Shown here: piece after piece, positions 12,925 to 29,672 of the stretch
Layout: every line of letters starts with the position of its first letter
How positions within the stretch are numbered: the first letter of the stretch is position 1
DNA from: Pseudomonas xantholysinigenes
Lineage (GTDB): Bacteria; Pseudomonadota; Gammaproteobacteria; Pseudomonadales; Pseudomonadaceae
Assembly: GCF_014268885.2 (NCBI RefSeq)
Contig: NZ_CP077095.1
Span: 4,371,001 to 4,435,000, forward strand
Length of the DNA: 64,000 nucleotides
Direction of reading: 5' to 3'
Notes under the pieces: generated by a model
Seen by the model: the letters and a program-made list of their open reading frames with translations, nothing else
The model's database searches: none
Told to the model about the DNA's origin: nothing
Program-made: the position numbers and the translations under genes

Positions 12925-12938
12925 GATCATTCCCACTC
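12925..12938. other. attL, 14-bp direct repeat copy
   Basis: GATCATTCCCACTC, identical to the guaA stop-codon region at 29659-29672. Bases beyond it diverge (TATTATC here, GATAGTG at the right end), which marks the left edge of the island. The 126 bases from here to the end of the HerA gene hold no gene. Confidence 0.88.
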
Positions 12939-13064
12939 TATTATCAACTGACGACGTAAACACCTTTAAACAAGATCTTTAAAGCCACCACCATTGGTCA
13001 ATACCATTATAAGTGCCATGCTTCGCACTCCATTGATCTGGCGGTGCGTGGGTAGGGTATAGCT

Positions 13065-14813
13065 CTAGCTACCCGCCCGCGACTGGCTGCGCAGAGACTC
13101 GACTGCGGCCTCAAGCAGCTTCTCATCGGGCATGAGGGTGCCCCACTCCCTCCAGAAGTCTCGTGTCGCGCTATCAGGCTTCACTCGAGGTTTGTCCAGT
13201 TTGATTCGCGTGGGGAGAAGTACAGCATCACCCAGTAGGAGAGCTTCGCCCGTGTCGAGCAGAGGAAGCATAGCCGTCAAGCCAACTAGAGAATCTGGCA
13301 TTAGCCTCTTGATGACATTCTGATCGCTGTCGTTCGTCAGTCTGAGGGCTAGGAAATTATTGCATTGAGAGAGGATCGTTCGGCTGACATCCGATGGCCT
13401 CTGGCTCACCACAAGTAAGGAGAACCCATACTTTCGCCCTTCCTTTGCTATGCGCTCAAATGACCATAGGGCCTGTCGTTGGACGGCGTCAGCGTCATCC
13501 TTAACTGGCAGATAGAGGTGAGCCTCATCGCAAAGCAATGTGATCGGCGTGCGAGCATCCGAGGTCATCCAAAACTGGACGTCGTAAAGCAAACGGGCCA
13601 GTGTCCCAGTGACGACAGGAAGCACATCAGCCGGTACCTCGGAGAAATCAATGATCTTAATCCCATTATTTGAATCAGCGCGAAGAAGCTTTACGATCTG
13701 CTTTGCTAGCCATCCGTAATCCAACGACTCTCGTGGTGGCGAGAACATAAAGCCATATCGACGATCCTCTAGCTTTGCCTCCAGTCGGGAAATGAAACGC
13801 GTGAGCTTATCTTCCCATTCACCTTTAACGGCGTTACCCGTTGCCCCAATCCCTTTCTTGGTATTGTCGACCTTCAATCGAGCAACCAAGTCGGATACTG
13901 CGTAAGGGATTGGGGAGTCGACTGTGAATGTCTCTTTAACTTTCGCCTTGCCCGAAGCATCCAGGGTCATTCCCTTCAGTTCACGCACGTGCCGGGTAAA
14001 GCGAGAGGCTTGGTTGGGAGCGTTCTGATCACTGCGGTCCAAGACCATCGACAGCATCTCGTCACGGTTAAGCAGCCAGTATGGAAGAAACAACGCATCA
14101 TCCGTAGGCGCAGCTAAGTCGCTAGGTCCCGCGATCCGAAACCGTTGCGCAAACCCGCCTTTGCTTTCGTCCGCGAGCGGTTGGTATTCGCCATGCATGT
14201 CGAAAACCACTATGTTGGGAAACTTGAGTTTGGCTGCCCTCTCAAGGATGAGCGCAACTGCCCAACTCTTGCCGGACCCGGTACTGCCGAGGATCGCAGC
14301 ATGTCGTTGAAAAAATTTGTCACCGCTAGCGATCGCTTCAGCGCTTCGGTCGGCGACGAAAGTACCTAGCTTTAAGCGCTCGTCGTCCGAGAGGTCTGCA
14401 CCCAAAATGCCCATGAAGCGTTGTAAGTTAGCTCCTTCGATGACGAAGCACTCCCGATCAATCTGAGGGAAGCTATCTGCTCCGCGCTTAAAAGTGTTTG
14501 ATTTGTCACCATCAATCGTCCGATACGTACCGATAACAAAAGCCTGCATGTGATCAGCAGGCGAGACCGTCAGCGTTCCAAAATCACCATCTGCTGGGTC
14601 GGGAAGCTCCTCACGGAGTGAACGTGTAACCCGATCAGCCATCGCGATCAGGAACTCAGCCTGTGTCACCCCCCTAATCGCAATGAGCTGCCCAATACCA
14701 ACACGTGTCAGCATTTCGGAGTTGTTGACGTCAATGGCTACACGGCTGGTGTCAACACCGGCGACGCGTCCAATTTGATCATTATCTGTAAAGTCAAGCG
14801 CTGCACCAGTCAT
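13065..14813 (-). CDS. HerA-type ATPase of a SIR2-HerA defence pair
   Basis: A 582-residue HerA/DUF87 translocase-like ATPase. An N-terminal HAS-barrel-like part is followed by Walker A GSTGSGKS (residues 176-183), a conserved FDMHGEY (204-210) and Walker B ITLLCDEAH (about 424-432), with a C-terminal SQRPSDVSRT sensor-like block. The start at 14813 overlaps the SIR2 stop by four bases (ATGA); the in-frame upstream ATG at 14852 lies inside SIR2. Known SIR2-HerA (Nezha) systems form a large complex that depletes NAD or attacks nucleic acid on phage infection. Here the pair is the outermost cargo, next to attL. Confidence 0.9.
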   Translation of the reverse strand: MTGAALDFTDNDQIGRVAGVDTSRVAIDVNNSEMLTRVGIGQLIAIRGVTQAEFLIAMADRVTRSLREELPDPADGDFGTLTVSPADHMQAFVIGTYRTIDGDKSNTFKRGADSFPQIDRECFVIEGANLQRFMGILGADLSDDERLKLGTFVADRSAEAIASGDKFFQRHAAILGSTGSGKSWAVALILERAAKLKFPNIVVFDMHGEYQPLADESKGGFAQRFRIAGPSDLAAPTDDALFLPYWLLNRDEMLSMVLDRSDQNAPNQASRFTRHVRELKGMTLDASGKAKVKETFTVDSPIPYAVSDLVARLKVDNTKKGIGATGNAVKGEWEDKLTRFISRLEAKLEDRRYGFMFSPPRESLDYGWLAKQIVKLLRADSNNGIKIIDFSEVPADVLPVVTGTLARLLYDVQFWMTSDARTPITLLCDEAHLYLPVKDDADAVQRQALWSFERIAKEGRKYGFSLLVVSQRPSDVSRTILSQCNNFLALRLTNDSDQNVIKRLMPDSLVGLTAMLPLLDTGEALLLGDAVLLPTRIKLDKPRVKPDSATRDFWREWGTLMPDEKLLEAAVESLRSQSRAGS

Positions 14814-15847
14814 GCGGATAGAACTCCTTTCACGAATCCGTCTAGGTCCCAATAATCGACATCGGGATAAAAATTTTCTGCGCCGTCGATGATGAAACGG
14901 GTGCCAAGAATGCCACCCTCCTGGTGAAACTCTGCCGCGATCACGTTTTTGTGCCCGATGGCCAACTCCCGCGCCTTAGGAGAAAGCCAATAGGTCAAGA
15001 TTACGGTCTTCACACCTGACTTGATCCGCGGGGTCAGATGCGTTTCTAAATGATCGTCATTGAAGCCGTAACCGAGAATCAGAAAATAGCGAGCCTTGTC
15101 GATAGCATCGTTGGCTTTTTCACGGTGCTTATCGAACGGGCTCTCGTAACCGCTCCTGAATTTGTTTAGCCCCGGCGTGATGATGAGTCGAGGAAGCGGC
15201 AGTGATCCTGCGTAGCGTACCGGATTGCCTTCACGGTGATACCAGTCAAGACTACCGTGCGGTTTGTAGACGTTTGCCTTTGGCGCGAATTTGTACCGTA
15301 CATTCTTACCGACTAGTTTGACGCTACGGCAGAAGCCCCAGTAGCTATCTTGAGGATCAAGCCGCGCAGCAAAATGGCCAGAGAACATCGTGTCAACACC
15401 TAGCCCAGCCTCTTCGCAGGCAAGCTCAACAAGACGGTCATAGTTCGTCGTCACGATTGATATCCCTGTATCCGGTTTCAACAGATGGGGGATAAGCCTG
15501 GTTAGACGAAGGGTCTTTGCGTTGCAGAACACCTCGGAAATAATCCCCGTTTCGGCAGAAGCAATAAAATCGCCCGTGCTTTGCACGATAGCCGCCTCAA
15601 GGGATGGCGTTGGAGCATGTTTTAGCAACGCAGCTTCCAGCCCCTCAGTTTCAATGAGCGGATAGATCTCTTGCCAAAGGTTGTTATCGTCCGCGGAGAG
15701 GCTCGCTGGAATATGCGTGACAAGATGCCGTCCAAGCGGCCCCATCCCCGGCACACCCTCCGCGCATGACAGTCCGGAACCAACGACCAGAACGAGACCA
15801 TCACCAAGCTGTTTCTGCAGCTGCTTCTTTAACGCACTCAGTTCCAT
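14810..15847 (-). CDS. SIR2-domain NADase of a SIR2-HerA defence pair
   Basis: A 345-residue protein of the SIR2_2 family. It has a Rossmann glycine motif VVGSGLS (residues 21-27), the TTNYD signature (133-137; N135 and D137 are expected to act in NAD cleavage) and KPHGSLDW (195-202; H197 as candidate catalytic base). Such domains in defence systems hydrolyse NAD+ and stop phage growth. It overlaps the HerA gene by ATGA, so translation is coupled. The 268 bases upstream (15848-16115) hold its promoter region and no gene that I can support. Confidence 0.9.
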   Translation of the reverse strand: MELSALKKQLQKQLGDGLVLVVGSGLSCAEGVPGMGPLGRHLVTHIPASLSADDNNLWQEIYPLIETEGLEAALLKHAPTPSLEAAIVQSTGDFIASAETGIISEVFCNAKTLRLTRLIPHLLKPDTGISIVTTNYDRLVELACEEAGLGVDTMFSGHFAARLDPQDSYWGFCRSVKLVGKNVRYKFAPKANVYKPHGSLDWYHREGNPVRYAGSLPLPRLIITPGLNKFRSGYESPFDKHREKANDAIDKARYFLILGYGFNDDHLETHLTPRIKSGVKTVILTYWLSPKARELAIGHKNVIAAEFHQEGGILGTRFIIDGAENFYPDVDYWDLDGFVKGVLSA

Positions 15848-16115
15848 GTGCCCCTACCAATGTGAACGCGCCGAGTCTCCACGAAAGGTAGCATGGCCCG
15901 CGTCCACTCGACAGATTATTACTCTGACACCGAGGAAGCGCCCTGGCACGCAAGCCTCAAAGCATGACTCTGGGAATGGTGAAGCTACTCAGGCACGGTA
16001 CTCATAGAAAAAATTCGCCAGACGTGTAGTCAGGGGAGTCACTACATACCGTCCAGTCCAAGAAACTCATCCAAATTTCAGCGGCCGCTTCCCGCAGGTC
16101 TGGCCTTGCACTCTC

Positions 16116-16688
16116 CTATGTGACTTGAGCGATCCAGTCCTTTGGGGGATTCAGCTTCGATATTTCGATGTTGTAAATCTCGTGTCCCCTCCGAATTTGG
16201 TAGTTAGGATGTACCCATTCACCAGCCGAGTAGTAGCGTGACTCCTCCAAAAAACGCTCGCGGCCTATGCCTCCCAGCAACCACATGCGGCGCTCGGCAA
16301 TTTCGTATGTCATGAAGAAGTAATGGTCGATTGGCTCTTCCGCATGACGGGCGGTGATTTGAGCGGTGTAGTCGTTGCGGGGCGGGACCTTACGCTTCAC
16401 GGTTTTGACGCCGACTCGGATATTCAGACCCGTTACAAAGTCAGGTTGACCAGCGGCATCGTCCAATATCCACCTAAAGCTTTGGATGCCCTCGTGCTTG
16501 AACCAAGAGTTGAAAACCATCTCGCCCAAGTCACCCACCCAACGCTCATCAGTGGCGACTTCGGTGTAGATGTTCCCATACTGGCGATCACGCTCTGCCC
16601 GCATCTGCTTGGCCCGCACTTCATGCTCTGGCGCTATTAAGACAGAAATCCACCCTTGCGGGTGGACTTGGCTATTCGTCATCCCCAT
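16116..16688 (-). CDS. PD-(D/E)XK nuclease-like protein of unknown role
   Basis: A 190-residue protein. The start at 16688 is chosen because its ATG overlaps the stop of the preceding gene as TAATG; the frame is open further upstream, but that would lie inside that gene. It shows a possible PD-(D/E)XK core: GDLGEMVF (E56) on a first helix, QPDF (D83), then RVGVKTVKR (K95, K98) on a beta strand. This order fits a restriction-endonuclease-like fold, although the middle acid of (D/E)XK is replaced (GVK). It is the last gene of a coupled operon with a restriction-modification pair. Function is unproven; nuclease is inference from motif spacing. Confidence 0.55.
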   Translation of the reverse strand: MGMTNSQVHPQGWISVLIAPEHEVRAKQMRAERDRQYGNIYTEVATDERWVGDLGEMVFNSWFKHEGIQSFRWILDDAAGQPDFVTGLNIRVGVKTVKRKVPPRNDYTAQITARHAEEPIDHYFFMTYEIAERRMWLLGGIGRERFLEESRYYSAGEWVHPNYQIRRGHEIYNIEISKLNPPKDWIAQVT

Positions 16689-16906
16689 TATTTCCCGCAG
16701 TACGGGCATTCGCCACCGAGAGGTCCGAAGTTCATTGTTGTTGACTTCGCAAACCAGTGGGATTCATTAAGAGACTCAAGACTAATCTCTTTCTTCTTCC
16801 TTTCATCTGCATTTTGATATTCATTTATAAGCTTGACTGCCTCTTCTCGTTCCTCTGGCGTCAACGACACCCAGACAGACAAAACCCGTTTTGCTTTCTC
16901 ACTCAT
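16688..16906 (-). CDS. Small zinc-ribbon-like protein
   Basis: A 72-residue protein with a helical N-terminal two thirds (LTPEEREEAVKLINEYQNADERK is charged and helix-prone, split here only for description) and a C-terminal tail GGECPYCGK. A single CxxC knuckle is not a full zinc site, so it may dimerise or share a site with a partner. Its stop overlaps the start of the PD-(D/E)XK-like gene as TAATG, and the upstream two-TM gene ends 14 bases before it. Its conserved place in the operon suggests that it is an adaptor; function unknown. Confidence 0.6.
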   Translation of the reverse strand: MSEKAKRVLSVWVSLTPEEREEAVKLINEYQNADERKKKEISLESLNESHWFAKSTTMNFGPLGGECPYCGK

Positions 16907-17481: not shown

Positions 17482-18443
17482 TATTTGCCCTCTTCCTCAT
17501 ACGGGCCAAGGAAGCGCACACCGTTGAAGTGGATCAAGTGTGACGGCGCATCGGCTACCCAAACCTCCGTCTCCCATGCGATTTCTCCAAGGTAGCGGCC
17601 CATAATAGTGCGGTTCGGGAAGGCGGTCACATAGACCAACCCGGCATTGGAGCCGGCGAAGAGCTTGGCTAGTTCGGAGTGGCGCTTGCCATCGACCGGC
17701 CCATGACTAGTGACGGACTCGACCAGCAGCAGCCAATTCTTCTCCACGAAGTGCAAGACCACATCGGGCATCTTGCCGTGCGAGTCCACGGCCACGCCCA
17801 GTTCGGCGAGCAGTGCGGCGTCGAAGTAGCCCCACTTGTCGCCGGTATCGCCGGCGTAGACGAGCAAGCTACCCGGCGCAAAGCGGGGTGCAAAGTCCTC
17901 GACGATGGCTCGGATCAGTTCGCTGTGTTCGCCTGGGCTGAGAGTGATTTCCTTCCCCGGCGCGATCTCAACCGGGATGCGGTTATGCTCGCGCTCCATA
18001 GCGTATTTAGCAATTAGTGTTTCACGCTCGGCCAGGTAGGCAGTGAGATTATCGTGCCACTGTTCGCTACCGAAGCTGCGCAGCAGCTTGAGAGCTGAGG
18101 GCTCGACCTGATAGACCGCCCTCGGGCTGTTCACCGGGCGGTCTGGCTTGTCCGGGTTGTATAGAGCCACACCAGCGTCGCAGAACTGATGCATAGTCTG
18201 TCGACGGAAAGCCTCGCGAGAGTTAGGAGCGTACTCCTTGCCGTAATGCTCTCGCGCCCAATCCATGATAGGGGTGATGCCTACCAGCGGATTCTCTGCC
18301 TCCGCCCACGACCTACCGGGTGTGAGGTTCAGCAGGGCTAGCAGTGACAGGGCGGAGCGCTCGCTCTGCTGCGCTCGCGGCAGCCCCAGAGAAATGATGA
18401 TCTGGTGTGCGGCCTCGATGTATTCGTGCTTTTTGTCCGTCAT
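17481..18443 (-). CDS. Type II restriction endonuclease, BsuBI/PstI family
   Basis: A 320-residue enzyme. Its C-terminal half carries the BsuBI/PstI family blocks YAGDTGDKWGYFD (residues 196-208), KMPDVVLHF (224-232; PD 226-227) and WLLLVESVTSHGPVDGKRH (237-255). The family cleaves CTGCAG. The start at 18443 overlaps the methylase stop by ATGA; a longer in-frame ATG at 18509 falls inside the methylase. The N-terminal half looks like a winged-helix region. Family call is strong; the exact recognition site is inferred. Confidence 0.9.
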   Translation of the reverse strand: MTDKKHEYIEAAHQIIISLGLPRAQQSERSALSLLALLNLTPGRSWAEAENPLVGITPIMDWAREHYGKEYAPNSREAFRRQTMHQFCDAGVALYNPDKPDRPVNSPRAVYQVEPSALKLLRSFGSEQWHDNLTAYLAERETLIAKYAMEREHNRIPVEIAPGKEITLSPGEHSELIRAIVEDFAPRFAPGSLLVYAGDTGDKWGYFDAALLAELGVAVDSHGKMPDVVLHFVEKNWLLLVESVTSHGPVDGKRHSELAKLFAGSNAGLVYVTAFPNRTIMGRYLGEIAWETEVWVADAPSHLIHFNGVRFLGPYEEEGK

Positions 18444-19909
18444 GCGGTCAGCTTCCCTAGCTGTTCGTCCATCATTTCCTGCGTAATTTCGTTGTGCTGC
18501 TTCGCCCACTGCCCAAGCTTGATTAGCGCCTCACGGCTGGGGTACTTCATCAGTTTGAGGTCGGTTGCGTTGACCTGCGTATGTCCATTGAAGCGGCGGA
18601 AGCTCTCATCCACGGCGGTGGTGTTCAAAAACACGGCCAGCCCTCGGGTCAGCAGCTCCGGCAAGCCGCGTTTGTTCTCGTGGAAGAGATTCATGTGGTT
18701 TTCAAACCCCAGCACGGTGTGGTCGCCAAAGGCCGCAGGATCAACCACGCTGGCCACCACCCGGCGCTTCTCTTCCTTCGATGAGAACCGTCGTACCACG
18801 CAGTAAAAACCGTTCGGATAAAGCCACTTTTCCGTCTCGGCGTTGCGCAAGATCGCGTTCGGCTTCTTCAAGCCCGGCACCGGCCAAACCGTCCCAGTAA
18901 TGCTCAGGTGTCCAGGGTAGATCAGCGGCACAGCGCCTTCTTCGGGCATCTCGCGCAGTTGCTCTTTCAAGCGGAAGTCCACCACAGGCCCGGTCGATAC
19001 CTTGATGCCAAGATCGGCAAGGGAGTAGCGCACCCCGCGCAGTAGCTCAATGGTGCTTTTTTCGGTGGTAGTGGGCACATGGATGAACCGCTCTGGGTCA
19101 TCCGGGAACACGATACGGTCGAACGGGTGTTCATTCGTGGCAAGGTCGGTGAAGCCGTCATCGGTCGATGTGGTGACCGTCACTGGTCCCTGCTGCCCGC
19201 CTCGTTCAAGGCGGATGATGACATTCTCTTGAAGCACTTCATCGTCTTTGAACGCCTTGTTGCGCGACTCGAAGAGGTGCATGTGGCGGATGGCCGCACG
19301 CTCAAGAATGAAGTCACGGAACGGGCGGTAGTACGGCCCATTGCAAAAGCTGCGCGGGATGATCGCGACGATCTGGCCGCCCGGTGCGGCCTGTGCTACA
19401 GCGAGCGCAACGAAGGCCGAATACAGGTTCACCGTCTCAATACCGACAGAGCGCAGGGCCAGGCGGTGGGCTGAATTGCTGTTGATCTTCTTGTAGGGCG
19501 GATTGAGGATTGCGTGGGTATAGCCTTGGGCCTGCGGATCCTCTGCGGTTGCTAGTTCGATGTAGTCCCCAGCGATGACTTCGGCCTTGACCTTGCTGTA
19601 AGCCGTCAAATGCTGTTTGAGGTGCCCCCGCAACTTGTCGTCCACCTCGTAGGCCGTCGCCTCTACCTCCGTGAAGTCGAAGCCACCGGCCACCCAGCGG
19701 TCAAGGAAGGCGCAAGAAAGTGCACCTACGCCCGCGCCCGCATCCAGCAAGCGGCAGGTCTGCATGGTGCTAGGGGGGAACATGCCCGCCATGAAGCGGG
19801 CTACGCTCGAGGGCGTCATGAACTGGCCCAGCTCAGACTTATGCTTCTGGGCGGTGCGGGGGGCAACCTCACGGCGCACGCTGTCTGCCGTGTCAAGTTG
19901 TTGGAGCAT
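18440..19909 (-). CDS. Type II DNA adenine-N6 methyltransferase, PstI/BsuBI type
   Basis: A 489-residue gamma-class methylase with the SAM-binding motif LLDAGAGVGALSCAF (about 54-68) and the catalytic NPPY (136-139). The C-terminal part is the target-recognition region. It protects the site cut by the next gene. The start at 19909 is taken because the region upstream in the same frame lies inside the serine recombinase gene. It begins 13 bases after that gene and overlaps the endonuclease by ATGA, so methylase is made before nuclease. Confidence 0.92.
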   Translation of the reverse strand: MLQQLDTADSVRREVAPRTAQKHKSELGQFMTPSSVARFMAGMFPPSTMQTCRLLDAGAGVGALSCAFLDRWVAGGFDFTEVEATAYEVDDKLRGHLKQHLTAYSKVKAEVIAGDYIELATAEDPQAQGYTHAILNPPYKKINSNSAHRLALRSVGIETVNLYSAFVALAVAQAAPGGQIVAIIPRSFCNGPYYRPFRDFILERAAIRHMHLFESRNKAFKDDEVLQENVIIRLERGGQQGPVTVTTSTDDGFTDLATNEHPFDRIVFPDDPERFIHVPTTTEKSTIELLRGVRYSLADLGIKVSTGPVVDFRLKEQLREMPEEGAVPLIYPGHLSITGTVWPVPGLKKPNAILRNAETEKWLYPNGFYCVVRRFSSKEEKRRVVASVVDPAAFGDHTVLGFENHMNLFHENKRGLPELLTRGLAVFLNTTAVDESFRRFNGHTQVNATDLKLMKYPSREALIKLGQWAKQHNEITQEMMDEQLGKLTA

Positions 19910-19922
19910 TCCGTCTCGACCT

Positions 19923-20492
19923 CTATTGGCGCGGCGCGATGACGCCGACGTGTTTGTAAAGTGTGGTGCGGGACACGCCATAACGGCGGGCCACGTCAGC
20001 CACTTGAATGTCTGGGTCGCGCAAAAGCGCCTTGATTTCCCGCACCTGCTGTTCGTCCAGCTTCGGCTTACGGCCACCAGCCCGGCCACGTGCGCGAGCG
20101 GCAGCCAGACCGGCCTGTGTGCGCTCGCGGATCAAATTCCGCTCGAACTCGGACAGGGCGGCGAACACATGTAAAACCAGTCTACCCGCTGCGTTGTCCG
20201 TCTCGATCTTCTCGGTCAAGCTCTCGAAGCCAACGCCGTGCTGTTCCAGCTCGGCCACGATTCGCACCAAGTCCGGCAGACTGCGCCCGAGCCGGTCCAG
20301 TCGCCAAACCACAAGCGTGTCGCCCTCTCGCAGCGCCTTGCGGCACTGCTCAAGCTCCGGTCGAGCCGTCGATTTCCCGCTGGCCGCTTCCTCATAGATG
20401 ACGCTGCAACCCGCTTTCGTTAGTGCGTCCCGTTGCAAGTCAAGGTGCTGGTCATCTGTCGAAACGCGGGCGTACCCTATGCGTTGTTTCAT
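19923..20492 (-). CDS. Serine recombinase, resolvase/invertase family
   Basis: A 189-residue enzyme with the catalytic serine in YARVSTDDQ (S near residue 11), the arginine block VVWRLDRLGRS and the E helix ALSEFERNLIRERT, followed by a C-terminal helix-turn-helix (VADVARRYGVSRTTLYKHVG). This is the complete Tn3-resolvase/Hin layout. It lies immediately upstream of the methylase on the same strand. It may be a resolvase left from a transposon that carried the restriction-modification genes, or a DNA invertase. A palindrome at 20581-20606 could be part of its target. Confidence 0.9.
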   Translation of the reverse strand: MKQRIGYARVSTDDQHLDLQRDALTKAGCSVIYEEAASGKSTARPELEQCRKALREGDTLVVWRLDRLGRSLPDLVRIVAELEQHGVGFESLTEKIETDNAAGRLVLHVFAALSEFERNLIRERTQAGLAAARARGRAGGRKPKLDEQQVREIKALLRDPDIQVADVARRYGVSRTTLYKHVGVIAPRQ

Positions 20493-20580
20493 TGACAGTA
20501 CCCAAACATAGAAAAAATGACGGCAATCTTAACAGCTTGGGAAGAGTTGGGGGTAGGACAAACCGGCGATCCTGCGGACC

Positions 20581-22600: not shown

Positions 22601-23389
22601 ATGAAACCAGAACCGGGGAAATTATCGGCGTACACCGCCAGAGATCTTAGGCGAAGCGTGAGGCTTATCGTAGCGAGCTTATGCATTGGTTCGAGTCTCT
22701 ACATAGCACCAAGCCCGGCTTATGCCATCTACTGCTCAAACTGCTCAACGTTTTACCAGCAAATGTTCGAATACGCCGAACAGGTAAATACTGCTTTGAA
22801 CACTGCTGAGCAACTCCAAACCCAAATCCAGCAGTACCAAAATATGCTCACTCAGGGCTCGGGCTTACCCAACTCTATGTTTGGTAGCATCGCCGCCGAC
22901 CTGAGAAGCGTGCTGAACATCTATCAGCGTTCACAAGCACTCGGCCGTCTTATTCAGAACATGGACGCGCAGTTCAACACAGCCTATCCCGCTTTCGAAG
23001 ACTATCTAGCTCAAGCTGCTATCTCTGGAGAGGCGCAGACGCGGGATCGTTATGAAAGGTGGTCTGAACAAGGTCGAGACAACGTTAGAAGCGCTTTGGG
23101 TGCAGCAAATATAAACACCAGCACTTTTGAATCGGAAGATGCCCAACTCGAACGCATGATGGCTCGTTCACATAATGCCGCTGGAAGGATGCAGGCGATT
23201 CAGGCGGGCAACGAAATCGCATCGCAGAACGTGCAGCAACTGCAAAAGCTACGCGATCTCGTTGCCACGCAAATCAACATGCAGGGCAACTACCTGGCTC
23301 AGGAAGGGGACCGGAAGGCAGCTAGCGAAGCTGCCGAACAGCAGTTTGAAGCGCGCAAAAGCACACGCGGCGGCGTGAAGGGATACTGA
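22601..23389 (+). CDS. trbJ: P-type conjugative transfer protein TrbJ (VirB5-like)
   Basis: A 262-residue secreted protein. The start at 22601 follows GAGG by 8 bases. A long signal peptide (hydrophobic LIVASLCIGSSLYIA, cleavage after YAIY-preceding AYA) leads into the conserved TrbJ opening YCSNCSTFYQQM and long helical regions (EQLQTQIQQYQNMLTQ). TrbJ is the VirB5-type component, exposed at the pilus or channel tip. It is followed directly by a trbK-like gene and trbL. The other Trb genes (trbB-I) are absent from the island. Confidence 0.88.
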   Translation: MKPEPGKLSAYTARDLRRSVRLIVASLCIGSSLYIAPSPAYAIYCSNCSTFYQQMFEYAEQVNTALNTAEQLQTQIQQYQNMLTQGSGLPNSMFGSIAADLRSVLNIYQRSQALGRLIQNMDAQFNTAYPAFEDYLAQAAISGEAQTRDRYERWSEQGRDNVRSALGAANINTSTFESEDAQLERMMARSHNAAGRMQAIQAGNEIASQNVQQLQKLRDLVATQINMQGNYLAQEGDRKAASEAAEQQFEARKSTRGGVKGY

Positions 23390-23390: not shown

Positions 23391-23579
23391 ATGACTATTT
23401 CAAGATGGCTCATCGTATTGATGTGCGCCGGGTCCGCAATGGCCGGTGCCATTTTCACCGTAGTCGTTCATAGCGACAGCGCATGTACTGCGATGACCGA
23501 GCAACAACGGCAACAGCATGACGCTGATGCCTCATTTGATGCGCGCCCGAACACTCGCGGCGGCGTCAAAGGGTACTAG
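23391..23579 (+). CDS. TrbK-like small secreted protein
   Basis: A 62-residue protein one base after trbJ. The N-terminal hydrophobic segment WLIVLMCAGSAMAGAIFTVVV is a signal or membrane anchor; a short hydrophilic tail follows. Position (between trbJ and trbL) and size match TrbK, the entry-exclusion protein of IncP plasmids. A clear lipobox is not obvious. Its last eight residues, TRGGVKGY, are identical to the end of TrbJ, which is unusual. The trbK assignment rests mainly on synteny. Confidence 0.6.
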   Translation: MTISRWLIVLMCAGSAMAGAIFTVVVHSDSACTAMTEQQRQQHDADASFDARPNTRGGVKGY

Positions 23580-23581: not shown

Positions 23582-25189
23582 ATGGATCGTCGCCTATTTT
23601 TGTTACTCGCTATGGCGAGCGTGTTTGTTAGTGCGGATGCTATGGCCTCGACTGACCTTGCCCAGGCAGATACATCCGTCCAGGGCCTACTCGACCTCGT
23701 TTTGCAACAGTCGCACCAGTGGTCAGGAAAGCTGTATGACTATGCGATCAGACTGTTTTGGCTGCTGGCCTCGATCCAGTTCATTTGGACTTTCATGCCC
23801 TTAGTTATGAAGCAGGCTGATTTCGGCGAGATTGTCGGCGAGCTGCTGCGCTTTGTACTGGTAATCGGTTTTTTCCTCGCAGTCATGAAGTACTCGGTGG
23901 AATGGTCGACTGCCATTGTCGACAGCTTCCGAGATGCGGCGGCATCAGCGAGCGGTCTCGGGCGGGCATTAGAACCCGGCGATATGCTGGCAGTTGCGCT
24001 GGATTTTGGCCGGACTATGGTAAAGGGCATTTCGGTGTTCTCTCCGGCCAAGGGACTTCTGATCGCCGTGTGCGCGATCCTTGTACTGGCATGTTTCGCC
24101 TTCATCGCTGCGTTCATGTTTGTGACGCTCGTGGAGTCTTACGTCATCATCAATGCTTCGGTGCTCTTCCTCGGCTTCGGCGCTTCGCAATGGACGCGAG
24201 ATTTTGCGATTGCACCTATGCGCTTCACCGTTGCGATTGGTACCAAGCTATTTGTACTAACTCTGATTGTTGGCCTGATCGTACAGTCGGCAAAACAGTG
24301 GTTGGCCGCTTACACCAATGACGAAGCGTCATTAATGACTATGGTCGGTTTGGCCTTGGTTTGCTGTTACCTCACTAAAACTATTCCTGACGTAATCGGC
24401 GGCATGATTAGCGGCACCTCAATGGGCGGCGGCTCGGCCATAGGCGGGATGGCAGTGGCCGGTGCTGCTGGTGCAGCTGCGGCAATGGCCACGATCGCAA
24501 CAGCCGGTGCAGCGGCTCCAGCGGCGGCCAGCACGCTCGGTGCAGCCGGGGCGGGTACAGGTGTGGCCGGGGCAAGTGGCAGTCTGGCCAGTGCAATCAA
24601 CTCCAGCTTTGCCGGCGCCAGCTCGGCCGGGGAAGTGGCGTCTTCCGCAGGGGGCATGGCCTCATCCGCGAGCGTTGGCACCAGTACAGGCGGCAGCGCT
24701 GCCGCCAAAGGGGCTAGCACCGCCGGTTCGCGGGTCGGCGGCGGCACCGCCAATACGGCCCCATCACCATCGCTCTCTCAACCTAGCAGCAGCGTACAGC
24801 AGGCCGTCAAACATGCCGGAAAGTCAGCGCAGGGAAATGATGGCAAGGAACAGCCTACGACACCAAAAGGTGGAGCCACCGGCTCCAATAACACGCTTTC
24901 GCAAGCGGCTAGTGGTGCAGCAAAAATGCTCGGCGTAATGGCATCAATGTCAGTGCCGGGTATGGAGAACGCGCATGCCTTGCATCCTGGCTCAGGATCT
25001 CCAGCACCTCTTCCAGAGGGTAACGGTTCGGTGAGTCCGACTAATGAAGTGGAGTTAGCTGCTAAATCCACACAAGAGGAATCCAATGTCATCCGTCCCG
25101 CCTCCGACACCAGCCCTACCCCCGGCCGCCTCGCAACGCTCCAGTTGCCCGGCATGACCTCGAACAACCAATCGGAAAACCAACCATGA
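23582..25189 (+). CDS. trbL: P-type conjugative transfer protein TrbL (VirB6-like)
   Basis: A 535-residue polytopic inner-membrane protein. After a signal-like start come five or so TM helices in residues 45-290 (for example LFWLLASIQFIWTFMPLVM and LIAVCAILVLACFAFIAAFM), then a long Ala/Gly/Ser-rich low-complexity tail, as is typical for TrbL. TrbL/VirB6 forms part of the translocation channel. It starts two bases after the trbK-like gene and overlaps the next gene by four bases (ATGA). Confidence 0.9.
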   Translation: MDRRLFLLLAMASVFVSADAMASTDLAQADTSVQGLLDLVLQQSHQWSGKLYDYAIRLFWLLASIQFIWTFMPLVMKQADFGEIVGELLRFVLVIGFFLAVMKYSVEWSTAIVDSFRDAAASASGLGRALEPGDMLAVALDFGRTMVKGISVFSPAKGLLIAVCAILVLACFAFIAAFMFVTLVESYVIINASVLFLGFGASQWTRDFAIAPMRFTVAIGTKLFVLTLIVGLIVQSAKQWLAAYTNDEASLMTMVGLALVCCYLTKTIPDVIGGMISGTSMGGGSAIGGMAVAGAAGAAAAMATIATAGAAAPAAASTLGAAGAGTGVAGASGSLASAINSSFAGASSAGEVASSAGGMASSASVGTSTGGSAAAKGASTAGSRVGGGTANTAPSPSLSQPSSSVQQAVKHAGKSAQGNDGKEQPTTPKGGATGSNNTLSQAASGAAKMLGVMASMSVPGMENAHALHPGSGSPAPLPEGNGSVSPTNEVELAAKSTQEESNVIRPASDTSPTPGRLATLQLPGMTSNNQSENQP

Positions 25190-25506
25190 GAGAAGTCCTT
25201 ATGTTTGCTGGATTCATAGTACTCGCCTCAACGTTAGCCATAGGCATGTGGGCACTCGGTCGGTGGCTGCGCTGCAAAGGCTATGGGCCGCAGCTCGATA
25301 AGCTGCATCGCCAATACACAGCCTTGCAGCTTCGGGTAAGCCCGCTCGCTTTATCGGCTTCCCATCGTATGTTTGCCGGGGCACAGATCATCAATCGTTT
25401 ACCAATGCTGGGAAGCAAGAGTAGCGCCTGCCTAAACCAGCAAGTATTAGCGGCCATCCAAGCTGCGAAGGAAGCGGCGAAACATGAGAACCGCGAAAAA
25501 CTGTGA
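25186..25506 (+). CDS. Small membrane protein at end of trbJKL operon
   Basis: A 106-residue protein with one N-terminal TM helix (VLMFAGFIVLASTLAIGMWALG) and a basic, helical cytoplasmic or periplasmic domain. It overlaps trbL by ATGA, so it is co-translated. I do not recognise the family. It is probably a partner of the TrbJ-TrbL module. Confidence 0.65.
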   Translation: MREVLMFAGFIVLASTLAIGMWALGRWLRCKGYGPQLDKLHRQYTALQLRVSPLALSASHRMFAGAQIINRLPMLGSKSSACLNQQVLAAIQAAKEAAKHENREKL

Positions 25507-25882: not shown

Positions 25883-25992
25883 TGAATATCCTGAATATCC
25901 TGTTAACTCCGGGCGGGTGTGGCACGCACCGGGCGGGTGTGAAACGCTTCCGGGCGGATGTGACACGCCATCGGGCGAGTGTGAAACGCTTC
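25883..25992. repeat. Iteron-like tandem repeats, candidate oriV
   Basis: Four imperfect 20-22-bp direct repeats (core CGGGCGGGTGTGAAACGC; 25909-25928, 25929-25949, 25950-25971, 25972-25992), preceded by two copies of TGAATATCC. They cover the last codons of repC and are read there as repeated FHTRP-like units. Direct repeats of this size beside an initiator gene are typical of iteron-controlled origins such as IncQ oriV. Confidence 0.65.
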
Positions 25993-26748
25993 AGGAGTTG
26001 CGAGCACCGCCTTTGTAATACGATCACCATTGAGCACAAGCCCAATTCGTCGTAGATCTTCAGCATCCTCCCTAAGCCTCTTTCGCGCATTGCGCATGTC
26101 TTGACTTGAGGCTTGTCCGGCAACCGCCACGATAACGGTGTCTAGATACCAACCGCCCGCTGGAACTACTTTGTGGCTTAAAAGGTGCCGAGCTATCGCT
26201 TGACTGATGCCGTGCCGGAGGCGAGCTATTGGGGCCGGGTCGTAATACAGGCTCAGATCATGTTCAAGGAGCATCATCAACGCAATTCCGAGCCGCACCC
26301 GCCATAGGTTCCGCTCTCCTCCTGTCAGAGGATCGGGACGTGTCATGGGGGAAGGGATAACGTGATCAATCAACCCGCCGATGATGGGAAAATCAAATTG
26401 CGTCGTTTCAATTGTGATCGTTGCAGCGCGAAGCTCGGCCAGCAGCTTTTCGAGCTGTGAGAAGCTGTAGCGGCTATCGGAAAGTGTCTTTCTCACTCGC
26501 GCGGGATCTACTAGAAGTTCTACGCCACCATCGGAGACAGGCCGCCGACGTTCTGCGCAGTACAGAACCGCTTCCAATACATCCGCGTGTCTCTGCCCCA
26601 GTCGACCTGCTACACGGCAGCGCCCAAATGATGTCTCAGCCCAATCACCTTCGCGCAGACGCGGGCGCTGGCTAGGCTGATAAAGCATCACTCTGGCCTG
26701 TGCGATAGTACTGGTGGGGACCACGGAGTTACCACCGCTCATCATCAC
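25903..26748 (-). CDS. repC: RepC-like replication initiator
   Basis: A 281-residue basic protein with a winged-helix type layout, including a C-terminal block SQDMRNARKRLREDAEDLRRIG (split: SQDMRNARKRLRED, AEDLRRIGLVL) that parallels the end of IncQ RepC. It is encoded directly after an IncQ-type RepA helicase and overlaps it by 20 bases, the RSF1010 gene order repA-repC. Its last 30 or so residues are a repeat (EAFHTRP, ACHIRP, EAFHTRP) produced by the iteron-like DNA. Sequence similarity to RSF1010 RepC is weak by eye; context carries the call. Confidence 0.65.
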   Translation of the reverse strand: MMMSGGNSVVPTSTIAQARVMLYQPSQRPRLREGDWAETSFGRCRVAGRLGQRHADVLEAVLYCAERRRPVSDGGVELLVDPARVRKTLSDSRYSFSQLEKLLAELRAATITIETTQFDFPIIGGLIDHVIPSPMTRPDPLTGGERNLWRVRLGIALMMLLEHDLSLYYDPAPIARLRHGISQAIARHLLSHKVVPAGGWYLDTVIVAVAGQASSQDMRNARKRLREDAEDLRRIGLVLNGDRITKAVLATPEAFHTRPMACHIRPEAFHTRPVRATPARS

Positions 26749-27607
26749 TTCCGTTTGCGAATTGCAGCGGGCTCCCCTTCCTCACTTCCGCCAGTTCAAC
26801 CGGCACAAGAACGCCTCCTTCCTGGCGTTGGTACCACTGGTCGAGCGGGGTGGCATCGTAGTTCTGCTTGCTTACACCAAAACGGACAAAAAAACTGCGC
26901 CTGTCGTTGCCAATAGGCTGTCGCTCATAGGTGCGGTCACTCAGTCGCTTTGCTTCGTCCTCGGTCATCTTGGCCACGAAGCCGCACCAACGGGCATTGT
27001 CGATTAGAGCTGATGCACCACGCGCTGCCTGCTGCTGATCGGTTTGCCCCTCGCGGGCGCTACCCTTACTGACATGATGAAGGTACAACACCGATGCTCC
27101 GGTGTTGGCAGCAACGTGCTCAAGCGTAGCGACAAGCCGCGACATGTCACCGTTGCTATTCTCGTCACGGTCGTGAATCCGGCTGAGTGTGTCCAGTACG
27201 ATCAACCGGGCACCGTCGCAAAACTCGTTGACCCGGGCAAGATGCCGATCATCCATTACGTTCAGCCGCTTACCCATTATTGGCTCAAGGGTAAGGTTCC
27301 TCGCGATGGATTCACGTGCCTGCTGATTCAGGTGCCGACCGATGGCATGAATCCGGCGCACGAGTGCGGCTTCTGGGTCTTCTCCTGCGAAGTAGACGAC
27401 GCGGCCAGTACATGCTGGGGCGAGCCCTACAAGATCCCCGCCTGCAACGCTGCATGCGATGGCCATTGCAGCTTCCAAAGCCCAAAAGCTTTTGCCTGTA
27501 GCTCCGGGAGCTACCAAAGCTCCTACTGTACCAGCGAGGAATCCCGGCCAAATAAAGTCTAGAGTGGGAGGCTCACTCTCGAACGCTTCCCGTAAGTCAA
27601 TTGCCAC
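26729..27607 (-). CDS. repA: IncQ-type RepA helicase
   Basis: A 292-residue RecA-fold hexameric helicase. The N-terminal FLAGTVGALVAPGATGKSFW carries Walker A (residues 34-41). Further blocks are VVYFAGEDPEAA, LIVLDTLSRIH (Walker B), VLYLHHVSKG and QQQAARGASALIDNARW, all in the order of RSF1010 RepA, and the length is similar (about 280). The start is GTG 27607, three bases after alpA. In IncQ plasmids RepA unwinds oriV opened by RepC. Presence in an integrated island suggests replication of the excised form. Confidence 0.88.
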   Translation of the reverse strand: MAIDLREAFESEPPTLDFIWPGFLAGTVGALVAPGATGKSFWALEAAMAIACSVAGGDLVGLAPACTGRVVYFAGEDPEAALVRRIHAIGRHLNQQARESIARNLTLEPIMGKRLNVMDDRHLARVNEFCDGARLIVLDTLSRIHDRDENSNGDMSRLVATLEHVAANTGASVLYLHHVSKGSAREGQTDQQQAARGASALIDNARWCGFVAKMTEDEAKRLSDRTYERQPIGNDRRSFFVRFGVSKQNYDATPLDQWYQRQEGGVLVPVELAEVRKGSPLQFANGSDDERW

Positions 27608-27610
27608 AAT

Positions 27611-27841
27611 TCAGGCTCCCATTCCTGGCCGCGGAGCCGGGCCACTGCCCTTGCATGCATCAATCCATTCTTCGACCTCGCACAGATCCCACACGACCTT
27701 GCGGCTACTGAGCGCAATCCGGCGAGGGAATTTTCCCTGCTTTTCAAAGTTGTAGATCGTGCGCTCGCATAGCGGAATCATTGCCAGCAACTGTTTCTTA
27801 CTGATCAATACTTTGCGCTCTTTTCTCGATTCTTTTTCCAC
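27611..27841 (-). CDS. AlpA-family regulator / excisionase
   Basis: A 76-residue protein from GTG 27841 with GAGG 8 bases upstream. The MerR-like helix-turn-helix ISKKQLLAMIPLCERTIYNF and KQGKFPRRIALSSRKVVWD are the AlpA signature. AlpA proteins activate integrase or act as directionality factors for excision. It heads the alpA-repA-repC operon, so excision and replication may be induced together. Confidence 0.85.
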   Translation of the reverse strand: MEKESRKERKVLISKKQLLAMIPLCERTIYNFEKQGKFPRRIALSSRKVVWDLCEVEEWIDACKGSGPAPRPGMGA

Positions 27842-28065: not shown

Positions 28066-28066
28066 G

Positions 28067-28146: not shown

Positions 28147-29355
28147 TCAATCCGCTACACGAGGTTTCCTAAGCGTCCACTCGTCAATCATGTCCGCCCA
28201 ATCCTGCAACATCGCACGGCGCTGATCCCGATACTCGGCCTTGTTGTAAACGGCTCGCACACCTTTCTGTTCGTGCGCGAGGCACTTCTCGATCCAGTCG
28301 GAGTTGTAGCCCGCCTCATGCAACAGCGTGCTAGCCGTGCGGCGCAGGTCGTGGGGGCCGAATTTACCTAGCGGCACCCCCTCCTTTTGGGCAAGGCGAT
28401 AGGTGAGCGTCAGTACCTGGTTGATTGTGGCGGCACTCATTGGCAAATCGGAGTCGTAGCGTGACGGCAGGATGTAATCAGAGCCTCCGGCCAAAGTTTT
28501 CAACGCAATGAAGAAATCCAATGCCTGCCGGGACAGAAACACCAAATGAGGGTTTCGGCGCTTCATCCGCTCTTTGGGGATCGTCCATAGCGCCTCGCTG
28601 AAATTGATTTCACTCCACGTAGCATTGGTCAGCTCGCTTTTGCGCACCATCGTCAGCAGCAGGAGTTTGGCTGCGGCACGAACCGACGTCGCTGTTCCGA
28701 TCCGATCCATGTACTGGTACATCAGCGCAATTTCATCAGGCGTCAGCGCCCGATCGCGTGGCTCAAATTTGGCGATGCTGGCAGACCTCACTAGGTCCGC
28801 TGGGTTTTCAACCTTCTGGCCACGCTCAATGGCCCAGCGATAGACCTGTAGCACGATCTCACGGGAGTGGACAGCAGTTGCAGGCGCCCCCCGCTCCACT
28901 ATCGCATCAGTCAGCGCCCGCAGATCCTCATGAGTGATTTCAGCCAGCTTCTGATTGCCAAACTTCGGCTTCAATTCTCGCTCGTAGACTGATCGGCGCA
29001 TGTCGCGTGTCGAATCCGCCATCTGATAGCCGCGCAGCCATTTTTCAGCCCAATCATCAAATGTCTCAGCCCCCTTCGTGCGCGCCTTCGCACGCGCCTT
29101 CTCCTTAGCTGGCGACTTACCTCCGGCGATCATCTTCTTCGCCTCCCCTAGCTTCTCACGCGCCTCCGCCAGGGTGATCCCGCCCAAGCCATAACGACCG
29201 AAGGTGACGGTCTCCTGCCGGCCATTGATGGAGTAGTTGTAGCGAAAGGAGATTGAGCCGGCCGGTGTAACCGCCACGTACAAACCATCGCGGTCAATCA
29301 CCTTGTAGAGCTTGTCTTGCGGTTTGAGGTTTCGAAGCTTGGTATCAGTGAGCAT
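28147..29355 (-). CDS. int: Tyrosine integrase, P4/DUF4102 type
   Basis: A 402-residue phage-type integrase. The N-terminal DUF4102 arm-binding domain (LTDTKLRNLKPQDK, RYGLGGITLAEAREK) is followed by the core-binding and catalytic domain with R in LLLTMVRKSEL, HDLRRTAST (H-x-x-R) and the nucleophile Y in VYNKAEY. The start at 29355 has GGAAG just upstream; two longer in-frame ATGs (29373, 29385) lack one. It lies 304 bases from attR, the usual place. It should cut in the guaA 3' end. Confidence 0.95.
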   Translation of the reverse strand: MLTDTKLRNLKPQDKLYKVIDRDGLYVAVTPAGSISFRYNYSINGRQETVTFGRYGLGGITLAEAREKLGEAKKMIAGGKSPAKEKARAKARTKGAETFDDWAEKWLRGYQMADSTRDMRRSVYERELKPKFGNQKLAEITHEDLRALTDAIVERGAPATAVHSREIVLQVYRWAIERGQKVENPADLVRSASIAKFEPRDRALTPDEIALMYQYMDRIGTATSVRAAAKLLLLTMVRKSELTNATWSEINFSEALWTIPKERMKRRNPHLVFLSRQALDFFIALKTLAGGSDYILPSRYDSDLPMSAATINQVLTLTYRLAQKEGVPLGKFGPHDLRRTASTLLHEAGYNSDWIEKCLAHEQKGVRAVYNKAEYRDQRRAMLQDWADMIDEWTLRKPRVAD

Positions 29356-29378
29356 GGCTTCCACTTTTCCCATGAAAA

Positions 29379-29529
29379 ATACCATGCTCTAAAAAGCGCG
29401 GAAGAATGGGGTTTCCCCCAGTAAAACCGGGCCTGTTGGCTATCTCGATACCATGCCCGTCCTGATAAGACGAGCATGGTATCAAGCCTCATGCATGGCA
29501 TCGGATGCAGTTAGTACCCCGTACCATGC
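29379..29529. repeat. ATACCATGC motif array, candidate integrase arm sites
   Basis: Copies of ATACCATGC or close variants at 29379-29387, 29448-29456, 29474-29482 (inverted; with the previous it forms a perfect 10-bp palindrome GATACCATGC/GCATGGTATC), 29493-29501 (inverted, one change) and 29522-29529. They lie between int and attR, where arm-type sites for integrase or AlpA are expected. The first copy overlaps the region just upstream of the int start, so autoregulation is possible. Confidence 0.65.
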
Positions 29530-29590
29530 CATAAAAAATAGATGCTTGGCGATGCAAAACCCTGCCTGAACTTGCCAGACCCAAAAAGCC

Positions 29591-29614
29591 AAAAGCCCGC
29601 AATTACGCGGGCTT
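29591..29614 (-). terminator. Island-borne terminator behind guaA
   Basis: A stem AAGCCCGC / GCGGGCTT; on the minus strand it is followed by TTTTGGCTTTTT. It lies inside the island, 45 bases from attR, and replaces the original guaA terminator now at 12863. Confidence 0.82.
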
Positions 29615-29658
29615 CAGGGCATTTTTTGCTAGATCGTGCCGGGCAGTGCCGGACGTGG

Positions 29659-29672
29659 GATCATTCCCACTC
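29659..29672. other. attR, guaA 3' end copy of the 14-bp repeat
   Basis: GATCATTCCCACTC. In reverse complement it reads the last codons GAG TGG GAA and the TGA stop of guaA, so insertion leaves the gene intact. Confidence 0.9.

What the first reader, a model, noticed from the sequence alone, without database searches (positions are those of the whole stretch)
12925..29672. Relaxase-less mobilizable element in guaA combining IncP-like oriT, IncQ-type replication and a partial Trb set
Seen: int, alpA, repA, repC, traJ, an RP4-like oriT, a TraC-like gene and trbJ-trbK-trbL, but no TraI-type relaxase, no ATPases and no other channel genes between exact 14-bp repeats. Known: IncP TraJ and oriT work with TraI; IncQ RepA and RepC drive rolling-free replication of small plasmids; SGI1-like islands borrow helper channels. 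Inference: after excision the circle replicates by the IncQ-type module and is mobilised by a helper with a RP4-like relaxase. I do not know a named element with this exact combination.
Basis: partly seen in the sequence, partly recalled or inferred. Interest (0 to 1): 0.9.

Follow-up and report, generated by a model that had tools for sequence, protein, structure and literature searches.

The report
Relaxase-less mobilizable island in guaA
This is a DNA island of the known GIsul2 type that cannot start its own transfer but keeps a transfer origin and three channel genes, and those three genes look like a swappable cassette that may set which recipient cells refuse the transfer.

Summary
A 16.7-kb island sits at the 3' end of guaA between exact 14-bp repeats. 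It has int, alpA, an IncQ-type repA, an initiator gene, oriT, traJ and trbJ-trbK-trbL, with no relaxase, VirB4 or coupling protein found.

The anatomy is in print for GIsul2/Tn6591, so this is a new member of a known kind.

What I add. (1) Of 32 islands inspected (window included, not a random sample), 3 carry traI and 31 keep the oriT. A relaxase-bearing E. coli cousin with the same restriction cargo has traI where this island has a spacer. (2) All 22 oriTs compared resemble pMBUI2/pSN1216-29 plasmids more than R751 (IncP-1), which shifts the predicted helper. (3) Relaxase-less islands of an E. coli and a Pseudomonas are about 99% identical in trbJ, half of trbL and int, with guaA at 71.5%, so this form has moved. 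(4) TrbJ and TrbK have closely matching C-terminal tails in the 31 islands that could be read. Tail, TrbK and TrbL types go together; integrase does not follow. This suggests an exclusion-specificity cassette.

Helper use, replication of the circle and exclusion are inferred.

The parts
12925..12938 (.). attL, 14-bp repeat GATCATTCCCACTC (core TCCCACTC)
13065..14852 (-). HerA helicase (cargo, SIR2-HerA defence pair)
   Evidence: PADLOC HerA 6e-236
14810..15847 (-). SIR2 (cargo, defence)
   Evidence: PADLOC SIR2 5e-183
16116..16709 (-). cargo protein of unknown function
   Evidence: no Pfam or PHROG match; 84% homologue in E. coli island L141
17481..18509 (-). BsuBI/PstI type II restriction endonuclease (cargo)
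   Evidence: Pfam 3e-61
18440..20089 (-). Eco57I-type methyltransferase (cargo)
   Evidence: Pfam 6e-9, PADLOC 2e-233
19923..20492 (-). serine resolvase/recombinase
   Evidence: Pfam 1e-47; 82% to L141 resolvase
20493..21057 (.). spacer at the place where E. coli island L141 carries a PIN gene and traI
21058..21429 (-). traJ, relaxosome accessory protein
   Evidence: NikA-like Pfam 1e-19; 70% to pMBUI2 TraJ
21488..21583 (+). oriT with MOBP-type hairpin; nic ACACATCTTG|CC expected after 21577
21900..22145 (+). TraC-like small protein
   Evidence: Pfam PF07820 9e-9
22039..22335 (+). small ORF found after the TraC-like gene in several relatives
22601..23389 (+). trbJ (VirB5-like), tail STRGGVKGY
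   Evidence: TIGR02780 2e-71
23391..23579 (+). trbK (entry exclusion), tail NTRGGVKGY
   Evidence: TIGR04361 7e-4, below cut-off; position and tail
23582..25189 (+). trbL (VirB6-like)
   Evidence: TIGR02783 3e-81
25186..25506 (+). orfN, small protein conserved after trbL in islands and pMBUI2
25907..25995 (.). four 20-21 bp iterons, part of an oriV homologous to that of plasmid pPSKoxy4_4
25903..26748 (-). replication initiator ('repC'), predicted tandem winged-helix type
26729..27607 (-). repA, IncQ-type helicase
   Evidence: RepA structure 1g8y 2e-72; 85% to pGNB2
27611..27841 (-). alpA
   Evidence: Pfam 2e-13
28147..29385 (-). int, tyrosine integrase
   Evidence: Pfam 2e-22
29584..29614 (-). 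terminator-like hairpin carried by the island end, downstream of guaA
29659..29672 (.). attR, second 14-bp repeat, at the 3' end of guaA
29661..31238 (-). guaA, target gene, reading frame intact

Best explanation
This is a GIsul2-type integrative mobilizable element that has no relaxase and works as a satellite of a conjugative plasmid. Int with AlpA excises it from guaA (inferred from published work on GIsul2). The circle is kept by RepA, a tandem winged-helix initiator and an iteron oriV (inferred). Its own TraJ and oriT recruit the TraI-type relaxase of a helper, most likely a pMBUI2/pSN1216-29-type plasmid (inferred from sequence). The relaxase was most likely lost from an ancestor that had the traK-oriT-traJ-traI set.
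For: No relaxase found in the island or host genome. Of 32 islands inspected, window included, 3 have traI (L016, L040, L141) and 31 keep the oriT, L039 being the exception. L026 keeps a 27-residue start of traI after traJ that closely resembles pMBUI2 TraI. L141 shares resolvase, MTase, REase and one more cargo gene (81-84%) and has traI where the window has a spacer. oriT pairs: 52 cells changed on both sides against 17.2 in shuffles, 0 of 500 as high. 22 of 22 oriTs are nearer to pMBUI2 or pSN1216-29 (better of the two 76-92%) than to R751 (60-69%). Relaxase-less islands of E. coli LR-33 and Pseudomonas G010: trbJ 98.9%, trbL 99.3% (854 nt), int 99.5%, against guaA 71.5%. dN/dS of trbL 0.03-0.15, trbJ 0.09-0.29, int 0.02-0.03 in six comparisons. 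oriV 81.5% over 162 nt and initiator 65% to an 8.3-kb plasmid. TrbJ/TrbK tails.
Against: No helper was found in this genome, so current mobility is unproven. The nearest sampled relative, P. guariconensis L023, is 91-98% identical in most backbone proteins (TraJ 52%) with GuaA at 97%, so recent movement of this very copy is not shown. traJ gives no hit in L030 (beyond a 24-residue piece), L034, L039 and L140, and is short or broken in L023, L027, L042 and L050, so some members decay. L039 has lost oriT and traJ. In print, GIflu-1 gave no transconjugants (PMC13418153) and an earlier test of GIsul2 found no circle (cited in PMC9376610). No primase gene was seen, unlike in pGNB2. LR-33 and G010 differ in repA (77%), so the islands are mosaics. 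The oriT structure was predicted from the same alignment, and one of five measures is weak (further pair types, 64 of 500 shuffles as high). GIsul2 itself was compared through papers only.
Confidence: 0.7

Rival explanations
1. A decayed, immobile remnant of a former ICE or relaxase-bearing element.
For: traI was probably lost; traJ is broken or absent in several relatives; no helper in the genome.
Against: oriT with paired changes kept in 31 of 32; purifying selection on trbJ, trbL, rep and int; near-identical relaxase-less islands in two orders; both repeats exact in the window. TrbE, TrbB, TrbI and TraG gave no hit in the 30 island stretches searched; only L041/L053, which looks like a pMBUI2-type plasmid locus, has such hits.
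Confidence: 0.15
2. The helper is an IncP-1 plasmid, as proposed for GIsul2 in print.
For: The layout of oriT and TraJ is IncP-like; R751 oriT is 60-69% identical; the island supplies its own TraJ, which could adapt a foreign TraI.
Against: The best-scoring plasmid records for TraJ, TrbJ, TrbL and oriT are pMBUI2-like. In one search the records that I recall as IncP-1 (not typed in that call) match only 41 nt of the query; 17 of 77 records were not listed.
Confidence: 0.25
3. TrbJ-TrbK-TrbL act in the host cell as an exclusion (defence) module against incoming conjugative elements rather than in the island's own transfer.
For: TrbK is the exclusion protein of IncP; RP4 trbJ or trbK in a recipient protects it from the RP4 channel (PMC11045733 passages); cargo here is defence genes.
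Against: The tails differ from those of the four helper-type loci read, so the proposed helper would not be expected to be excluded; an immunity module would not need TrbL or an oriT (inference).
Confidence: 0.3
4. The shared TrbJ/TrbK tails are a by-product of gene conversion or duplication between neighbouring genes, without function.
For: The genes are adjacent; the two DNA copies in the window are 79% identical over 43 nt; 15 RRFL-type operons show no matching.
Against: Tails match in operons of many plasmid types; the C terminus of TrbK is essential for exclusion in print (PMC8923210); tail, TrbK and TrbL types go together.
Confidence: 0.25

Closest known systems
GIsul2 (Tn6591) and relatives
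   Same: guaA 3' end, GAGTGGGA core, int, alpA, repA/repC, trbJKL, oriT, resG, no relaxase (PMC5704250, PMC9376610, PMC8239412 passages)
   Different: Cargo here is SIR2-HerA and a PstI-type RM system, not ars and CR2-sul2; sequence identity to GIsul2 itself not tested
IncP island (Brucella suis, Burkholderia glumae) and GIflu-1
   Same: guaA site (IncP island of B. suis; GIflu-1); TraJ; TrbJ; TrbJ-TrbK-TrbL set in the B. glumae IncP island
   Different: The B. glumae IncP island encodes a MobP relaxase and GIflu islands a traI (PMC5704250, PMC13418153 passages); L016, L040 and L141 look like this form
ICERspD18B (Rheinheimera)
   Same: guaA, int, repA, repC, trbJKL; circle and transfer to E. 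coli at 2.76e-7 reported (PMC7775301 passages)
   Different: Its paper calls it conjugative; its 'relaxase' genes lie in repeats with IS91 and floR, so I read them as ISCR genes (inference)
SGI1 and IncC plasmids
   Same: Satellite that replaces a VirB6-type protein and evades helper entry exclusion (PMC11493245 passages); no relaxase (PMC5704250 table)
   Different: F-type channel, trmE site, different genes
pMBUI2 / pSN1216-29 plasmids
   Same: Nearest plasmid TraJ, oriT, TrbJ, TrbL, and an orfN homologue; proposed helpers
   Different: Conjugative plasmids with their own relaxase and channel and another TrbJ/TrbK tail type

Membership tests
GIsul2-type integrative mobilizable element | Integration at the 3' end of guaA with GAGTGGGA core repeats | tested here: met
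GIsul2-type integrative mobilizable element | int, alpA, repA and a second rep gene, trbJ-trbK-trbL | tested here: met
   the second rep gene is not IncQ RepC of the pGNB2 type
GIsul2-type integrative mobilizable element | No relaxase, coupling protein or other MPF genes | tested here: met
GIsul2-type integrative mobilizable element | Sequence similarity to GIsul2 itself | not tested
   pIP40a not held
GIsul2-type integrative mobilizable element | CR2-sul2 unit and arsenic operon (cargo of the type element) | tested here: not met
   Cargo is HerA, SIR2, REase, MTase; backbone kinship only is claimed, not identity with GIsul2
IncP island (relaxase-bearing) | MobP relaxase gene | tested here: not met
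IncQ replicon | RepA helicase | tested here: met
IncQ replicon | RepC initiator homologous to pGNB2 RepC | tested here: not met
   homologous instead to the second gene of pPSKoxy4_4, typed IncQ2 by MOB-suite
IncQ replicon | RepB-type primase | tested here: not met
   no such domain in the 20 ORFs scanned with Pfam
ICE | Complete T4SS with VirB4 and coupling protein | tested here: not met
Helper-dependent transfer | Transfer with a pMBUI2/pSN1216-29 plasmid | not testable with these tools
   needs mating

The most novel reading that the evidence does not exclude
In many P-type conjugation systems the VirB5-like TrbJ and the exclusion protein TrbK carry the same C-terminal tail, and this tail is the exclusion tag. 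Relaxase-less guaA islands carry and exchange [TrbJ tail]-TrbK-TrbL cassettes that re-tag the helper's channel, so that it escapes the helper's own entry exclusion. The exclusion target of IncP, IncW and IncN plasmids was stated to be unknown in 2024 (PMC11493245 passage); this reading points to TrbJ with TrbL.
Probability: 0.42. Interest if true: 0.82.

Novelty: new member of a known kind. Interest (0 to 1): 0.6.

Why it matters
The island type itself is known. The comparison names a more likely helper class and shows that relaxase-less members have moved between bacterial orders. It also yields a sequence rule for entry exclusion in a large part of the P-type systems: matching TrbJ and TrbK tails. 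If right, exclusion groups could be read from sequence, and it would be clear why these satellites keep exactly trbJ, trbK and trbL of a whole channel operon.

Tried and rejected
Rejected: 'novel element without a named relative' (GIsul2, PMC5704250). Rejected: remnant of a full ICE; TrbE, TrbB, TrbI and TraG had no hit in the 30 island stretches searched. Rejected: RepC as an IncQ RepC in the pGNB2 sense.

Led nowhere: cargo ORFs 16116 and 16921 had no family (for 16116 only). The first oriT scan looked at the wrong strand and one pattern was too loose; neither was used. The left-flank DNA did not map next to guaA in the relatives looked at, so sites were read from guaA itself: of 15 loci, 8 (L127, L128, L130, L131, L134-L137) show guaA followed by other sequence and no Int in the stretch; L126, L129 and L133 carry an island-like end; L125 is the window, L132 is G010, and L138 and L139 end differently.

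Against the tail reading. In 15 operons with RRFL-type TrbJ ends (IncHI-like among them) there is no matching: mean 18.7 matched, 18.1 mismatched, 6133 of 20000 permutations as high. IncN R46 is weak (score 21, rank 3 of 21) and the IncHI plasmid fails (rank 13 of 21). Only 16 of the 27 other systems have their own partner as best of row, partly because related systems share tails. In print, the pKPC_UVA01 TrbK also excludes IncP and IncN plasmids (PMC8923210), which is broader than a strict tag would predict. Permutations ignore relatedness. Of 42 loci (L067-L109 without L082, the window's own), 1 gave no hit, 9 were dropped as repeated tails, 8 had no candidate ORF and 24 entered. In L072 the script took a spurious ORF although the other ends NTPSPKRDW; it stayed in the count. 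Plasmids L061 (no gene annotated between trbJ and trbL) and L062 (trbB follows trbJ) were dropped; L021 had no TrbL hit; pMBUI2 is but not.

Counts. The 32 islands are the window, E. coli L015, L016, L140, L141, G010 (L017), L023-L040, L042, and L045, L047-L050, L052, L054. Left out as repeats: L018=L032, L046=L031, L051=L039; left out as plasmid-like: L041=L053. The E. coli ones were picked by hand (two best rows, then two to look at cargo), so 3 of 32 is not a random rate. Among the first 30, guaA was found in the stretch in 27 (not in L028, L037, L052), and a second att core in 9 of these 27; for the rest the far end was not found in the stretch.
Full report
WHAT IS THERE. The island spans 12925-29672 between exact 14-bp repeats, the right one at the 3' end of guaA. 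GC drops inside. From guaA inwards lie int, alpA, repA and an initiator gene whose end overlaps four iterons. Then come, on the other strand, orfN, trbL, trbK, trbJ and two small genes; then oriT, traJ, a resolvase, a PstI-type restriction system and a SIR2-HerA pair. No relaxase domain was found in the 20 ORFs scanned. TraI of E. coli HKUOPY1, pMBUI2 and pSN1216-29 and pieces of TraI gave no hit in the island. The host genome, one contig of 5.6 Mb, has no PF03432 relaxase and no PF03135 VirB4 match. The host is of the same genus as G051, whose contig has the length of Pseudomonas sp. T1-3-2 NZ_CP093280 and shares the fetched island stretch with it; I take it as Pseudomonas.

WHAT IS KNOWN. 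The combination is in print. Passages of PMC5704250 describe GIsul2 at guaA with RepA, RepC, TrbJ, TrbK and TrbL, no relaxase and no other relaxosome protein; they propose IncP helpers and reshaping of the channel. Passages of PMC8239412 list int and oriT in Tn6591 (GIsul2). PMC9376610 (introduction and passages) shows integrase-driven movement with core GAGTGGGA, and says that an earlier test found no circle. Passages of PMC7775301 report a circle and transfer for ICERspD18B. Passages of PMC13418153 describe a GIflu family with traI and traJ at guaA, for which no transconjugant was obtained. I did not see Harmer 2017 and could not compare the GIsul2 sequence itself.

RELATIVES. I used one scan of GTDB contigs with a TrbL alignment (20 loci), four hand-picked E. 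coli islands and Pseudomonas genomes. In the genus, 20 of 398 genomes have a TrbL match at 1e-60; one of these, L053, looks like a plasmid locus. In E. coli, 34 of 5426 genomes have a DNA match to int. After removing repeats this gives 32 islands, window included. traI is present in 3 (L016, L040, L141); the oriT is present in 31, missing in L039. By PF03432, 8 of 21 searched genomes have a match, but only the one of L040 lies inside the island; L015 and L016 were not held. traJ gives no hit in L034, L039 and L140, only a 24-residue piece in L030, and is short or broken in L023, L027, L042 and L050. The oriT remains in all of these but L039. A cis site kept while trans genes erode fits mobilisation in trans.

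LOSS OF THE RELAXASE. In L026 the frame after traJ begins MIAKRVPRDKGTHSPTRLVRYIVATVR and then stops; pMBUI2 TraI begins MIAKRVPRDKGTSSPARLVRYMVAAVG. The E. coli island L141 shares with the window the resolvase (82%), MTase (84%), REase (81%) and the 16116 gene (84%). DNA similarity ends 42 bp beyond the resolvase and resumes within traJ. In between L141 has a PIN gene and traI, while the window has a 565-bp spacer. The relaxase-less island L047 shares 478 nt of that spacer at 83%, so the state is older than this copy. Loss from a traI-bearing ancestor is the simplest reading; gain in L141 is not excluded.

ORIT AND HELPER. The 96-bp oriT has the IncP layout: an AATAAGG box, a hairpin, then the expected nic at ACACATCTTG|CC. 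On 24 sequences (22 islands, 2 plasmids) a 25-pair structure predicted from the same alignment has 52 cells with changes on both sides against 17.2 in shuffles (0 of 500 as high). Sliding the partners by 1-3 columns gives at most 14. Pairs with such changes are 9 against 6.0 (6 of 500 as high), and further pair types 17 against 14.9 (64 of 500 as high), which is weak. All 22 island oriTs are nearer to pMBUI2 or pSN1216-29 than to R751. blastn of the window's oriT against plasmids gives 77 records, 60 listed: the pMBUI2/pSN1216-29 kind over 82-84% of the query at 81-88%. Records that I recall as IncP-1, not typed in that call, match 41 nt. TraJ is 70% identical to pMBUI2 TraJ. The pSN1216-29 paper (passages of PMC6232296) gives its nick site as ATCTTG, the same hexamer. 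A search for papers naming two of GIsul2, pSN1216-29 and pMBUI2 found one, with no mention of GIsul2.

MOBILITY. The relaxase-less islands of E. coli LR-33 and Pseudomonas G010 are 98.9% (trbJ), 99.3% (trbL, 854 nt) and 99.5% (int) identical, with repA at 77.0% and guaA at 71.5%. LR-33 against P. khavaziana gives trbJ 99.4%, trbL 94.6% and int 79.6%, with guaA at 70.8%. Over 210 pairs of islands, 93 have trbJ/trbL more alike than guaA. dN/dS in six comparisons is 0.03-0.15 for trbL, 0.09-0.29 for trbJ and 0.02-0.03 for int, with dS near saturation in several. In 8 of 15 loci fetched by guaA, the gene ends GAGTGGGA(A/G)TGA and is followed by other sequence without Int in the stretch.

REPLICON. 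RepA is an IncQ RepA (RepA structure 1g8y, 2e-72; 85% to pGNB2). The second gene is unrelated to pGNB2 RepC by BLAST. It has 417 homologues; about ten of the 120 listed are named 'ABC transporter ATPase' by a source. Its AlphaFold2 model (pLDDT 82.8) is nearest to RctB domains 2-3 (E 2e-4, TM 0.50), then with a weak score (E 0.12) to a plasmid WH1 domain. The 8.3-kb plasmid pPSKoxy4_4, typed IncQ2, has the same pair (RepA 84%, initiator 65%) and an oriV 81.5% identical over 162 nt. So the module belongs to a real plasmid replicon. No primase domain was seen in the island, so priming must come from elsewhere (inference).

THE TRBJ-TRBK-TRBL CASSETTE. TrbJ and TrbK end in matching tails. In 30 operons (29 islands and the plasmid-like L041; L024 dropped because its trbJ end is not readable) the last 9 residues agree at 8.07 positions on average within an operon and 4.74 between operons (0 of 5000 permutations). 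The lowest values are 6 of 9 in the islands and 4 of 9 in L041. L140 (DTPGPSKGF, DEPGPSKGF) and L141 (both NTRGGVKGY) agree as well. In 42 systems including IncP-1, Ti, Campylobacter and IncN the summed matched score exceeds all 20000 permutations. The 27 that are not of the RRFL type have mean 52.4 matched against 17.6 mismatched; the 15 RRFL-type systems show nothing. Among 29 islands, tail type goes with TrbL (92.5% within, 64.2% between), with TrbK body (68.5, 35.6) and partly with orfN (77.4, 64.2), and not with Int (84.4, 85.1) or TraJ (62.2, 63.0). L016 and L029 show a natural exchange: trbJ is 83-100% identical by 60-nt window up to the last two, which fall to 75% and 42%; TrbK is 43% and TrbL 68% identical. 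The four helper-type loci read (pMBUI2, pSN1216-29, L063, L041) have tails of the kind [TS]GxNKGY, seen in none of the islands. In print, the C terminus of TrbK is needed for exclusion and trbJ and trbL for transfer, but this TrbK also excludes IncP and IncN (PMC8923210, abstract and passages). RP4 trbJ or trbK in a recipient protects it (PMC11045733 passages). The exclusion target of IncP, IncW and IncN is called unknown, and SGI1 escapes IncC exclusion by replacing a VirB6-type protein (PMC11493245 passages). Searches of the open library listed 10, 13 and 2 papers; in the passages I read of five of them (PMC8923210, PMC11045733, PMC11493245, PMC12624023, PMC5704250) the shared tail is not stated. 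Most subscription papers are not held.

VERDICT. Ordinary as an element: a GIsul2-type island. Above ordinary for what its family shows about relaxase loss, helper choice and exclusion. Shown by sequence: anatomy, no relaxase found, conserved oriT, exchange between hosts, tail matching and co-segregation. Inferred: excision here, replication of the circle, the helper, and the role of the tail.

Noticed in passing
29584-29614 and 12858-12888: The island end carries a terminator-like hairpin after the guaA stop; its left arm (AGCCCGC) is seen at this place in 26 of 27 guaA-linked islands printed, including E. coli (the L049 print ended before it), while a similar hairpin of the host stands on the far side of attL. 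It may insulate int from guaA transcription.
   Followed up: partly
23345-23387 and 23535-23577: TrbJ and TrbK share a C-terminal tail; the rule extends to many P-type plasmids but not to RRFL-type (IncHI-like) operons.
   Followed up: yes
21493-21499 and 21572-21578: An inverted copy of the nic heptamer (GCAAGAT against ATCTTGC) lies about 80 nt upstream in the oriT and changes with it in R751 and L140 (GCAGGAT/ATCCTGC), but not in L029; the window has one mismatch.
   Followed up: partly
13065-15847: SIR2-HerA defence pair; another relaxase-less guaA island, E. coli 503025 (L140), also carries a SIR2-HerA pair, 31% and 46% identical.
   Followed up: partly
25903-26748: The initiator family (417 homologues) is named 'ABC transporter ATPase' in several public records, which looks like a naming error.
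   Followed up: partly
L026 8189-8109: 27-residue fossil of the TraI N terminus directly after traJ.
   Followed up: yes
L024, L025, L026, L031, L032 and others: Replication genes vary between islands: several show no RepA/RepC hit, and RepC comes in two types without BLAST similarity.
   Followed up: no
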